A DNA stretch of 64,000 nucleotides. It comes from Prevotella sp. (GTDB lineage: Bacteria; Bacteroidota; Bacteroidia; Bacteroidales; Bacteroidaceae). Below are positions 2,856 to 40,362 of this stretch, piece after piece. A model generated the notes under the pieces. The model was not told the origin of the DNA. It searched no databases and worked only from the letters and a program-made list of their open reading frames with translations. Position 1 is the stretch's first letter. Every line of letters starts with the position of its first letter. Made by a program: the position numbers and the translations under genes. The stretch spans positions 1 to 64,000 of the forward strand of contig JAILPA010000188.1 of assembly GCA_024690505.1 (NCBI GenBank). The letters are read 5' to 3'.

Positions 2856-2970
2856 AAAGCGTAACTTTGCAAACGGCAAAGCATAACTTTGGCCCAGGAG
2901 AAACGTAACTTCGACCGCAGAGAAACGTAACTTCAAGGACAACAAAGAGTAACTTCGCTAAAACAAAAGC
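2856..2970 (+). repeat. Tandem 22-bp repeat array (5 units), CGTAACTTYG type
   Basis: The gtaact/ataact core recurs at 2861, 2883, 2905, 2927 and 2949, exactly 22 bp apart. Confidence 0.85.
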
Positions 2971-14901: not shown

Positions 14902-15011
14902 GTCAAAGAATTTGAAACAAGTAGTTCGGGGCCGTTGAACTAACAGTTCAGAGGCCCCGAACTTTTAGTTCAGCGGCCCTGAACTAATAGTTTCAGACCG
15001 CTTGAAACTCT
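14902..15011. repeat. 22-bp tandem palindrome array (GTTCRGNGGCCNYTGAAC type), copy 1
   Basis: Units start at 14902 (degenerate), 14924, 14946, 14968 and 14990; same family as 40275-40362. Confidence 0.85.
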
Positions 15012-26781: not shown

Positions 26782-26945
26782 TGTAAGGAAAATTCAGATT
26801 TTCAAAAAGGGCCGTACTGTAAGCCTTTTGGAAAAGCACCGCTTTGAGGGTGAAAAAGGACAGCTTTGAGGGTCAAAAAGCGGTACTTTTCCGTCCTCAA
26901 AGCTGTCCTCTACTTTTTGCAAGAATATCGATGTAAAGAAAATTC
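26782..26945 (+). repeat. 164-bp modular intergenic element, copy B
   Basis: Flanks TGTAAGGAAAATTC / TGTAAAGAAAATTC; four 22-bp modules. Confidence 0.85.
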
Positions 26946-27161
26946 ACCGTCCGTATCGGGTTTGAATGGTTCATTATCCAGCCAAGCCCCTTCATCGCCA
27001 TGATAGCATTCCGTAGGCCAAACCCACATAAAATTGAATCAGCAGCACTAGAATAGGCCAAGCAACAGTGCTTAAACAGGTCTTTAGGTCGTCACCTACG
27101 GTCGGTCTTGAAGCGTAACATTTGCTCTTTATTTACGAAGGTGCTAAACATCGAGAAACGT

Positions 27162-27283
27162 GAAACGTAACTTTGACTGCAAAGAAACGTAACTTTGACT
27201 GCAAAGAAACGTAACTTTGAGGTGCGAGAAGCGTAACTTTGAGCAAAGAGAAGCGCAACTTTAAGCAACGAGAAGCATAACTT
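27162..27283 (+). repeat. Tandem 22-bp repeat array (5.5 units), GAAACGTAACTTTGACTGCAAA
   Basis: Units start at 27162, 27184, 27206, 27228, 27250 and 27272. Confidence 0.95.
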
Positions 27284-27505
27284 AACTAACATGCCCACAC
27301 TGAGGCGCCAAGCAGGCGGAATTGTTAATAACACTGTCAAAATGTGTTAAAAAACCATTTTCACCTATTTTTCCCCATTAAAAAACAGAAAATCCACTCG
27401 CTATTTCACATATTTTTCTTAATTTTGCACTCGATTACAAAACAATCAACGGAAACAAATCAATTTATTCACCTAATAATTACTAACTAAATCAAAAAAC
27501 AAGGT

Positions 27506-30500
27506 ATGAAGAACGCAATGCAATTGTTGTGTAAACTTTGCCTACTTGCTGCATTCTTTGTTCTGGCCCCCCCCGAGGCGCTGGCTCAGACGACTGCGAA
27601 AGGTCAGGTATTGGACTCTTCTAACGAGCCTATCATCGGTGCCACCGTGACCGAGAAGGGCAACGCGAAGAATGCCACAGCTACCGACTTCGACGGTAAT
27701 TTCACGTTGAAGTTGCAACACTCGAAGACGGTTGTCGTTTCCTACATTGGCATGTTGCCAAAGGAAGTAACCGCTTCGCAGAACATGAAAATCGTACTGG
27801 AAGACGACAACCAGTCGTTTGAAGAAGTGGTGGTCGTGGGCTACACCAGCAAGGCACGCAAGGACCTGACGGGCTCCGTGGGCTCCATCAGCGGCAAGAA
27901 GCTGGAGGCAGTGCCCGTCACATCGGCAGCCGTGGCCCTGCAGGGTAAGATTTCCGGCGTCCAGGTGACAACAGTCGACGGTCAGCCAGGTGCAGATGTC
28001 AACATCCGCGTACGTGGAGGCACCTCGGTGACTCAGACCAACGAGCCCCTATACATCGTCGACGGCTTCCAGGTGGATAACATCAACGATATTCCCCCAT
28101 CGGACATCCAGTCCATCGACATTCTGAAGGATGCCTCCCTCACCGCCATCTACGGTGCCAAGGGCGGCAACGGCGTTGTGGTGGTAACCACCAAGAGCGC
28201 CCAGGCTGGCACAGTGAAGGTGACCTTCAACGGCAACCTGAACGTGAGCCACCTCTCGAAGAAGCTCGACCTGATGAACGCCTCCGACTTCGTGAAGTAC
28301 CAGTATAACTGGCACGCTGCTGCCGGCACACGTAACGACAATGCAAAGTTCTTCCGTGCAAACTTCGGCAACCCCTACGACCTCGACATGTACCGGACGC
28401 TGCCCAGCCACGACTGGCAGGACGACGTGATGGGCGAGACACCGCTTAACTACTCGGCCAACGTCACCGTAGGCGGCGGCTCGGAGAAAGTGAAGTTCAA
28501 CATCTCGCTCACCAACAGCTCCGACAAGGGTATCATCCTCGGCTCAGGCGTACGCCGCACCAACCTGAACGTGAAGACGAACATCGCCATCAGCGACAAG
28601 CTGACGATGCAGTTCAACCCCAAGTTCACCTTCCGCCGCGACGAGGGTGCCGGTGGCGAGAACATCGGTACGGGTGGTATCATCGACGTACTGAAATATC
28701 GTCCCACCAACGGTCTGCGCGAATTCGGATACATCGACCCCGCCTATGCCGACCCCAACGAGGAAGAACTCTTCAACTACACCAACCCGAAGAGCGACAT
28801 CGCCATCAACCAGCTCATCAAGCACACCTATTCTTATTCTAACGGACTGTCGCTCAGCTGGACGCCCATCGAAGGACTCACCCTTCGCACAGAAGGCACA
28901 CTCGGACTGCAGTGGAGAGATGAGAGCCGCTTCTACGGAGCACTCACCAGCACCGGCCAGAGCCACAACAACCAGCCGGTGGCACAACTCACCGACTACA
29001 AGCGCTTCAGCTATGTGTGGACAAACACCGCCAGCTACAACTTCTCAGTGCAAGACAAGCACAACTGGTCGTTCCTACTCGGACAGGAGATACACCACTC
29101 CCAGAGCGTCAACCACTACATGATGAACCGCTACTTCCCACGCTCGTTCACTGCTCGCGAGGCATGGAACAACATGGCATTCGGCAGCCCCTACGAGGTA
29201 ACATCGAACCGCTCTACGGCCGACCGCACAGCATCGTTCTTCGGACAGGCCAACTACAACTTCCAGCACAAGTACCTCCTCTCCGCCACGTTCCGTGCCG
29301 ACGGTAGCACCATGTTCGCTCCCGGATACCAGTGGGGCTACTTCCCCTCCATCTCGGGTGCATGGGTGATGAGCGAAGAGCCGTTTATGAAGAACATCAA
29401 GTGGATTCATAACCTGAAGATACGCGCCGCCTTCGGTCTGGCCGGTAACAACCGCATCAACAGCGACCTCTGGCGCATACTCTACTCCATCAACTCCACC
29501 GGCGGACCCGGATTCGGCGAACAGACACAGTATGGCGAAAACTACTATGGCAACGCCAGCGGCAACAAGTTCTCGAACGAGAAGATCAAGTGGGAGACCA
29601 CCATCACTCGTAACCTCGCTGCCGACATCTCGCTCTGGAACGGACGCGTCACCATCACGCCCGAGTTCTACTGGAACACCACACGCGACCTGCTCTACAG
29701 CTCCGACCTCGACCCAACCCTCGGCTACACCAGCCAGATGCAGAACATCGGCCAGGTGACCAACAAGGGTATCGAGTTCTCCATCAGCGGCGACATCCTG
29801 CAAGGCAAGGACTACGTGCTCACCGCCAACCTGAACTTCGGCTGGAACAAGAAGAAGATCGACAAGCTGAACGGCACCGATGACGTCATCTGGGATCAGA
29901 ACAACCGTTGGAAGTCCAGCTACAACGACTACTGCCTGAAGGTAGGCGATGAGGTAGGTCTTATCTATGGCTTCGTCTACGACGGACTCTACCAGTTCGA
30001 CGAGTTCTACTTCGATCCTCTGAACAACTATCAGGCCGTGCCCTGGGGCTCAGCAGCTGCTGACAATGGCACCAGCGCCAACTGCGCACCCCGCAGCGAT
30101 GGCTACGTGACCATCATCAACGACATCTCAGGCTCATCGAACAGCGGTATCGCCACACTGCCCGGCAAGCCCAAGTTCAAAGACCTCGACGGCGACGGAC
30201 GCATCACCGAGAACGACCGCACCGTCATCGGTAACACCAACCCGAAGATTCAAGGTGGTTTCGGACTGAACGGACAGTGGAAGAACTTCGACTTCACCGC
30301 CAACTTCACCTACATGCTCGACTTCGACATCAACAACGCCACGGCCTACACACTCTCGGCTTCCGAGGGCAACAAGAACAAGTTCTTCAATGTTCTCGAC
30401 CGCTTCAACGACGCCTGGCAGTACAACGATATCGACGGCTCCATCACAGGTACGAAGGGCGATGTGCTCTACAAACTCTACTACGTGGACGACTGCGTGA

Positions 30501-30829
30501 ACATCTACAAGAACGCCAACAAGGACCGCACACTGTGGAATCCCACCGACGTCACCAAGAAAATCACTCACAGCTACTTCATCGAGGACGGCTCGTTCCT
30601 GCGCTGCTCTGACGTCACCGTCGGCTACACACTGCCGAAGGATCTCACACAGAAGTGGGGCATCTCCAAGGCACGCTTCTATGTGTCAGCATCCAACCTC
30701 TTCATCATAACCAGCTATACTGGCTACGACCCCGAGGTAGACATCCAGACAGGCCTCACCTGCGGCATGGACTACAACCGCTATCCGCGCAACCGCATGT
30801 TTGCTTTCGGAACGAACATCACATTCTAA
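27506..30829 (+). CDS. SusC/RagA-family TonB-linked outer membrane protein
   Basis: 1107 aa; CarboxypepD_reg-like N-terminus, VVVVGYTSKARKDLTGSVGSISGKKL, GGTSVTQTNEPLYIVDGFQVDN. Confidence 0.97.
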   Translation: MKNAMQLLCKLCLLAAFFVLAPPEALAQTTAKGQVLDSSNEPIIGATVTEKGNAKNATATDFDGNFTLKLQHSKTVVVSYIGMLPKEVTASQNMKIVLEDDNQSFEEVVVVGYTSKARKDLTGSVGSISGKKLEAVPVTSAAVALQGKISGVQVTTVDGQPGADVNIRVRGGTSVTQTNEPLYIVDGFQVDNINDIPPSDIQSIDILKDASLTAIYGAKGGNGVVVVTTKSAQAGTVKVTFNGNLNVSHLSKKLDLMNASDFVKYQYNWHAAAGTRNDNAKFFRANFGNPYDLDMYRTLPSHDWQDDVMGETPLNYSANVTVGGGSEKVKFNISLTNSSDKGIILGSGVRRTNLNVKTNIAISDKLTMQFNPKFTFRRDEGAGGENIGTGGIIDVLKYRPTNGLREFGYIDPAYADPNEEELFNYTNPKSDIAINQLIKHTYSYSNGLSLSWTPIEGLTLRTEGTLGLQWRDESRFYGALTSTGQSHNNQPVAQLTDYKRFSYVWTNTASYNFSVQDKHNWSFLLGQEIHHSQSVNHYMMNRYFPRSFTAREAWNNMAFGSPYEVTSNRSTADRTASFFGQANYNFQHKYLLSATFRADGSTMFAPGYQWGYFPSISGAWVMSEEPFMKNIKWIHNLKIRAAFGLAGNNRINSDLWRILYSINSTGGPGFGEQTQYGENYYGNASGNKFSNEKIKWETTITRNLAADISLWNGRVTITPEFYWNTTRDLLYSSDLDPTLGYTSQMQNIGQVTNKGIEFSISGDILQGKDYVLTANLNFGWNKKKIDKLNGTDDVIWDQNNRWKSSYNDYCLKVGDEVGLIYGFVYDGLYQFDEFYFDPLNNYQAVPWGSAAADNGTSANCAPRSDGYVTIINDISGSSNSGIATLPGKPKFKDLDGDGRITENDRTVIGNTNPKIQGGFGLNGQWKNFDFTANFTYMLDFDINNATAYTLSASEGNKNKFFNVLDRFNDAWQYNDIDGSITGTKGDVLYKLYYVDDCVNIYKNANKDRTLWNPTDVTKKITHSYFIEDGSFLRCSDVTVGYTLPKDLTQKWGISKARFYVSASNLFIITSYTGYDPEVDIQTGLTCGMDYNRYPRNRMFAFGTNITF

Positions 30830-40274: not shown

Positions 40275-40362
40275 TTTCAGCGGCCCTGAACTAATGGTTC
40301 AGGGCCGCTGAACTTTTAGTTCAGGGCCGCTGAACCATTAGTTCCAAAGCCCTTGAAACTAT
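40275..40362. repeat. 22-bp tandem palindrome array, copy 2
   Basis: Units start at 40275, 40297, 40319 and 40341; GTTCAG-GGCCG-CTGAAC perfect palindromes. Confidence 0.9.

What the first reader, a model, noticed from the sequence alone, without database searches (positions are those of the whole stretch)
27162..27283. 22-bp tandem array upstream of susC, each unit carrying a TAACTTTG -7-like box
Five and a half units of GAAACGTAACTTTGACTGCAAA lie exactly 22 bp apart (27162, 27184, 27206, 27228, 27250, 27272), about 220 bp upstream of the susC start. Each unit holds TAACTTTG or a variant (CAACTTTA, TAACTTAA), similar to the Bacteroidetes -7 consensus TAnnTTTG. The internal TTTG-to-TA spacing (14 nt) is not the N19-21 expected for a promoter. 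It could be a row of partial promoters, an RNA polymerase decoy, or a phased regulator-binding array of about two helical turns.
Basis: partly seen in the sequence, partly recalled or inferred. Interest (0 to 1): 0.7.

Follow-up and report, generated by a model that had tools for sequence, protein, structure and literature searches.

The report
Genome-wide 22-bp phased intergenic repeat arrays
The row of 22-letter repeats in front of this sugar-uptake gene is real, but it is one of at least 16 such rows scattered between unrelated genes in this bacterium, each keeping the same 14-letter core at an exact 22-letter beat, so it looks like a protein-docking array or a self-copying repeat and not the gene's promoter.

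Summary
The array is real: six 22-bp-phased cores at 27162-27285, 220 bp before susC. It is not a susC feature. The same core, RAARCGTAAYTTYG, recurs in at least 16 arrays (69 units) in the own genome. Adjacent cores are 22 bp apart: all 22 exact pairs in the whole genome, although spacings of 16-34 bp were allowed, with 0 in the reversed control. The 8-bp spacer is private to each array; the core is not. The core is also conserved within arrays beyond the neutral expectation (0.85 versus 0.64 for the spacer; a simulation predicts about 0.66).

Neighbouring genes are unrelated, and five of 16 arrays point at a gene's 3' end. The nearest susC orthologue has the same promoter box but no array. 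Array units differ from true -7 boxes in this genome, so promoters and polymerase decoys are rejected.

Twenty-two bp is also the commonest tandem period in intergenic DNA sampled across the genus, mostly with other cores. Other species with a similar core show unit-by-unit copy change.

Best reading: a dispersed family of phased protein-binding arrays, grown by local unit duplication. The binder is inferred, not found. The closest published relative is BrickBuilt of Porphyromonas gingivalis.

The parts
27162..27175 (+). unit 1 core GAAACGTAACTTTG (spacer ACTGCAAA 27176-27183)
27184..27197 (+). unit 2 core GAAACGTAACTTTG (spacer ACTGCAAA)
27206..27219 (+). unit 3 core GAAACGTAACTTTG (spacer AGGTGCGA)
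27228..27241 (+). unit 4 core GAAGCGTAACTTTG (spacer AGCAAAGA)
27250..27263 (+). unit 5 core GAAGCGCAACTTTA (spacer AGCAACGA)
27272..27285 (+). unit 6, degenerate terminal core GAAGCATAACTTAA
27420..27427 (+). likely true susC -7 box TAATTTTG, followed by C; about 134 bp downstream of the array; a matching TAATTTTG box lies at a similar place upstream of the nearest orthologue, which has no array
   Evidence: transcription start not mapped
27506..30829 (+). SusC-like TonB-dependent receptor (Plug, CarboxypepD_reg-like)
2856..2957 (+). second family-A array in the window, five cores 22 bp apart, ending 24 bp before a GH97 gene
26832..26947 (+). family-B dispersed repeat in the same intergenic gap (22-bp units AAAGNNNNNCTTTGAGGGTCA, inverted repeats); a copy also lies beside the C111 family-A array

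Best explanation
The array is one member of a dispersed family of intergenic arrays, so far seen above control level only in this genus, in which a 14-bp core (RAARCGTAAYTTYG) is repeated at an exact 22-bp pitch with an unconstrained 8-bp spacer. SHOWN: dispersion, exact pitch, core constraint, array-private spacers, unit-wise copy change between sister genomes, no link to promoters or to one class of gene, absence at the nearest susC orthologue. INFERRED: the core is the recognition site of a sequence-specific DNA-binding protein whose bound copies sit side by side two helical turns apart, giving a cooperative multi-site array (architectural, insulating or modulating neighbouring transcription). 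Arrays grow and are homogenised by local tandem duplication of whole 22-bp units, while selection for binding keeps the core and the pitch. At susC the array would at most modulate a promoter that works without it in relatives.
For: Pitch: 22 of 22 exact core pairs in the whole genome lie 22 bp apart when 16-34 bp was allowed, 0 in control. Core constraint: columns 1-12 carry 1.0-2.0 bits, columns 16-19 about 0. Within arrays the core is 0.85 identical against 0.64 for the spacer, core higher in 10 of 12 arrays, Wilcoxon p = 0.003; a neutral simulation that includes the detection bias predicts about 0.66 for the core. Between arrays core 0.80, spacer 0.35, so arrays are not recent copies of each other. 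Flanks share no common leader, tail or inverted ends; the longer matches found are two gene paralogues, two family-B copies and a C122/C165 pair. Unit-wise change: one locus in two close genomes (flanks 91-95% identical) differs by exactly one 22-bp unit. A closely similar core at the same pitch recurs in other species of the genus (7-unit array L205, 6-unit array L215), and hits in the rest of the order are at control level. RNA folding is not consistently strong, which favours DNA-level recognition.
Against: No binding protein was identified and no binding data exist. No functional class of neighbouring genes. The core is only weakly palindromic. A biased amplification process could also fix a pitch. 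The pitch in relaxed B-DNA (10.5 bp per turn) drifts by about 1 bp per unit.
Confidence: 0.48

Rival explanations
1. Neutral or selfish minisatellite: an unknown amplification process in this genus tends to make 22-bp tandem units; the arrays have no host function and the shared core reflects common descent or the preference of that process.
For: 22 bp is the commonest intergenic tandem period in the own genome (23 of 53 arrays) and in 13 other same-genus genomes (30 of 146; 21 bp: 6, 23 bp: 8), mostly with unrelated cores. No clear positional or functional preference. Array absent at the nearest susC orthologue. BrickBuilt in Porphyromonas gingivalis is a comparable species-specific repeat (PMC4596501).
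Against: Core is conserved well above the spacer within arrays. Spacers are not shared between arrays and flanks carry no common transposon-like ends.
Confidence: 0.35
2. Post-transcriptional leader element: the repeats act in 5' untranslated RNA, bound by an RNA-binding protein or small RNA, to control translation.
For: Five of 16 arrays end 17-41 bp before a start codon in the same orientation (C4, C70, C150, C170 and window 2856). TAACTGA direct repeats of Beggiatoaceae were proposed to act this way (PMC4679880).
Against: Five of 16 arrays point at a gene's 3' end, including one between convergent genes. The susC array lies upstream of the likely -7 box. Folding is not consistently strong in either strand.
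Confidence: 0.11
3. Row of partial promoters or RNA polymerase decoy built on the -7 box TAnnTTTG.
For: 29 of 69 units contain TAnnTTTG; TAnnTTTG is the published -7 consensus of the Bacteroidetes primary sigma factor (PMC7366714).
Against: 40 of 69 units break the consensus; units lack the C that follows TTTG in 83% of genuine sites and carry RAARCR, seen in 1 of 65 genuine sites. Fourteen-nt internal spacing cannot pair -33 with -7. Arrays in other species mostly carry TTCG or TTCA.
Confidence: 0.04

Closest known systems
BrickBuilt minisatellite/MITE of Porphyromonas gingivalis (PMC4596501)
   Same: Species-specific, intergenic, dispersed (19 loci), 1 to 23 tandem units of about two helical turns, conserved half plus variable half of the unit, unrelated neighbour genes
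   Different: 23-nt period, leader and tail with IS5-like terminal inverted repeats; here 22 bp and no shared flanks or inverted ends
TAACTGA heptamer direct repeats of Beggiatoaceae and some Bacteroidetes (PMC4679880)
   Same: Intergenic direct repeats of a short fixed word at many loci, some close to start codons
   Different: Heptamer unit and a different word; mostly directly upstream of starts; here a 14-bp core at 22-bp pitch with no strict position
REP/REPIN elements with RAYT transposase
   Same: Dispersed intergenic repeats; families B-E here also have inverted repeats
   Different: No Y1 transposase (PF01797) found in the own genome; units are tandem at fixed pitch
Iterons of plasmid origins (own knowledge)
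   Same: Direct repeats near 22 bp, phased protein-binding sites
   Different: Dispersed over the chromosome, no replication initiator tied to them; not tested further

Membership tests
BrickBuilt MITE | 23-nt tandem unit | tested here: not met
   Pitch is 22 bp in all exact pairs
BrickBuilt MITE | shared leader and tail with terminal inverted repeats | tested here: not met
   No common flanks among the 16 arrays
BrickBuilt MITE | unit half conserved, half variable; intergenic dispersal | tested here: met
Bacteroidetes primary-sigma promoter | -7 box TAnnTTTG in each unit | tested here: not met
   29 of 69 units
Bacteroidetes primary-sigma promoter | sequence context of genuine -7 boxes in this genome (C after TTTG) | tested here: not met
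   C in 83% of 65 genuine sites, A in 25 of 29 array units
Bacteroidetes primary-sigma promoter | transcription start just downstream | not testable with these tools
   needs 5'-end mapping
REPIN/RAYT | REP-associated Y1 transposase in the genome | tested here: not met
   PF01797 no match in own genome, found in 5 of 14 control genomes; own genome is 82% complete
Phased regulator-binding array | fixed pitch and conserved core with free spacer | tested here: met
Phased regulator-binding array | a protein that binds the core | not testable with these tools
   needs pull-down, EMSA or ChIP

The most novel reading that the evidence does not exclude
This genus carries a general, undescribed machinery tied to a 22-bp pitch: DNA-binding proteins, or an amplification enzyme with a two-turn footprint, that create and keep many 22-bp-phased intergenic arrays. 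The core differs between species and families, as satellite repeats do in eukaryotes, while the pitch stays fixed.
Probability: 0.3. Interest if true: 0.75.

Novelty: new variant of a known kind. Interest (0 to 1): 0.5.

Why it matters
If a protein reads these arrays, one factor would touch a dozen or more unrelated intergenic regions in this bacterium, and its site is now known to the base. If the arrays are selfish, the fixed 22-bp period points to an amplification process not found described here. In both cases copy number can differ between close genomes, so the arrays could be a source of expression variation and a strain marker. The finding also warns against reading TAACTTTG-rich repeats before susC as promoters.

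Tried and rejected
Promoter or decoy reading: rejected on base context. susC-specific operator: rejected, since the array is absent at the nearest orthologue (84% identity over the first 400 aa) and present beside unrelated genes. Coding repeat: 22 is not a multiple of 3 and arrays are intergenic. REPIN: no PF01797. Rfam: no match in the window. RNA hairpin array for family A: fold z-scores from -0.2 to -3.6 without consistency. MITE-like ends: none shared. Replication-strand polarity: 6 same, 10 opposite to local GC skew, no clear bias. Phage and plasmid records: no match. Viral contigs gave 8 scattered matches to the paired-core pattern at spacings of 18-26 bp, not followed up.

Full report
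OBSERVATION. The array is in the sequence as described: six cores at 27162, 27184, 27206, 27228, 27250 and 27272, each 22 bp after the last. The first two units are identical; later ones keep the 14-bp core and change the following 8 bp. The last core ends 220 bp before the susC start at 27506, which encodes a SusC-like receptor followed by a SusD-like gene.

IT IS A DISPERSED FAMILY. A search of the window's own assembly (2.9 Mb, 188 contigs, 82% complete) with two cores at 22-bp spacing gave 46 matches and none for the reversed pattern. In 748 kb read in detail there are 16 arrays with 69 units, including a second one in this window at 2856-2957 just before a GH97 gene. Part of those 748 kb was chosen because it holds arrays. 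When the spacing between exact cores was left free from 16 to 34 bp, all 22 pairs in the whole genome were at 22 bp. With looser cores one step of 23 bp appears, on C122.

ANATOMY OF THE UNIT. Columns 1-12 of RAARCGTAAYTTYG carry 1.0 to 2.0 bits, columns 16-19 almost none. Spacers resemble each other inside an array but not between arrays, whereas cores are nearly as alike between arrays (0.80) as within (0.85). In 10 of 12 arrays the core is more conserved than the spacer (Wilcoxon p = 0.003). A simulation of neutral divergence that includes the detection threshold predicts about 0.66 core identity at the observed spacer identity; 0.85 is seen. This is the main evidence that something reads the core. 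It also argues against recent copying of whole arrays; the flanks show no common ends. The longer flank matches are a pair of paralogous genes behind C170 and C150, two copies of another repeat family, and one pair of loci (C122, C165) not resolved further.

NOT PROMOTERS. Sixty-five TAnnTTTG sites upstream of genes outside arrays define the genuine -7 context in this genome: C follows in 83%, and RAARCR directly before TA occurs once. In array units with TAnnTTTG, A follows in 25 of 29. Only 29 of 69 units keep TAnnTTTG at all. The published consensus is TAnnTTTG at -7 and TTTG near -33 (PMC7366714). A better candidate for the susC promoter is TAATTTTG at 27420-27427; the nearest orthologue found (84% identity over the first 400 aa) has TAATTTTG at a similar place, and no array.

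CONTEXT. Neighbours include GH97, NadA, CobD, HU-HIG, a penicillin-binding protein, an S41 peptidase, cytidylate kinase and VapE-like genes: no theme. Downstream of the array lies a gene start in 11 of 16 cases and a gene's 3' end in 5, an excess that is not significant by itself. Five arrays end 17-41 bp before a start codon. Gene calls were made by a codon-usage script and are approximate; the left neighbours on C4 and C70 were called as reading into the array.

OTHER GENOMES. The paired core at 22 bp, with one mismatch allowed, occurs in 27 other genomes among 300 searched in the genus, with several hits in a few (8 in G228, 7 in G316) and single hits elsewhere near the control level. Over the rest of the order hits do not exceed control. 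The loci in hand show clear arrays with the same 14+8 layout, a slightly different core (GAGCCGTAAYTTCG) and other spacers (L205 seven units, L215 six, L208). L206 and L210 are the same locus in two close species and differ by one whole unit.

A WIDER PATTERN. In ORF-masked sequence sampled without regard to this repeat, the commonest tandem period is 22 bp in the own genome (23 of 53 arrays) and in 13 other same-genus genomes taken together (30 of 146; 11 of the 13 have at least one); five genomes from other families gave 2 of 22. The cores differ between species and families. Own-genome families B to E have inverted repeats inside the unit (mean longest stem 5.5 against 2.9 for shuffled units); other genomes less so (4.0 against 3.1, a script that stopped with an error before its third comparison, so no value for other periods is available). 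One genome (G009) instead favours 14 bp. The samples are small and the masking is crude, so the genus-wide statement is provisional.

MECHANISM. Shown: fixed pitch, constrained core, free spacer, local homogenisation, unit-wise gain or loss, dispersal, no promoter identity. Inferred: a DNA-binding protein that occupies one core per two helical turns and so forms a cooperative array. From general knowledge, estimates of the helical repeat in living bacteria lie near 11 bp, which would make 22 bp two full turns. The chief rival is a selfish or neutral minisatellite with a process that favours 22-bp units; it explains the genus-wide period more simply but explains the core-versus-spacer contrast less well.

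COMPARISON. The nearest published thing is BrickBuilt of P. gingivalis: 23-nt tandem units, half conserved and half variable, intergenic, 19 loci, but with leader, tail and IS5-like inverted ends (PMC4596501). This array resembles it in layout but fails its defining features, so it is not filed as a member. A handful of full-text searches found no description of 22-bp-phased arrays in Prevotella-like genomes; subscription papers were not searched.

Noticed in passing
window 26832-26947; also L030:18038, L031:4128, L032:3651, L035:14153, L043:19351, L046:9189, L052:7589, L056:16874, L061:15019, L133:7873, L136:1004, L138:14072, L139:4876, L140:9449: Family B: dispersed element with 22-bp units AAAGNNNNNCTTTGAGGGTCA, forming long inverted repeats and flanked in several copies by ATGTAARGAAAATTC; abundant in the own genome, MITE-like.
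   Followed up: partly
window 14937-14997 and 40276-40344; also L030:821, L034:19103, L037:12739, L050:586, L134:6064, L136:9689, L137:2786: Family C: 22-bp units AGTTCAGCGGCCCTGAACTAAT, strong alternating palindromes; in the window both copies lie just downstream of a gene.
   Followed up: partly
L031:13434, L036:10434, L040:18394, L046:18360, L053:4754, L146:1694; and L037:18363, L053:12623, L056:10556: Families D (AGTCCGAAGCCTTCGGACT plus 3 nt) and E (CGTAACACGGCGTGTTACG plus 3 nt), also at 22-bp pitch; an array on C135 (L130:8147-8278) grades from the family-A core into family-E-like units.
   Followed up: partly
L038:16748-16783 and L061:212-269: Family-A arrays 36-41 bp upstream of two genes with similar starts; the L038 gene is HU-HIG by Pfam. 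A BrickBuilt copy also lies beside a gene annotated as PF00216 DNA-binding protein, perhaps coincidence.
   Followed up: no
L029:6164-6265, L031:9363-9464 and other family-A arrays: Most cores hold TAA and 22 is not a multiple of 3, so an array read from its core strand stops all three frames within about three units; called genes at C4 and C70 appear to end inside the third core.
   Followed up: no
L087-L091 (genome G009): Same-genus genome with a 14-bp tandem period as its commonest intergenic period (11 of 36 arrays) instead of 22.
   Followed up: no
L083:3205-3273, L084:1981-2067, L151:9695-9786, L085:700-909: Arrays with 21, 23 and 44-bp periods and a fixed-plus-variable look in other same-genus genomes.
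   Followed up: no
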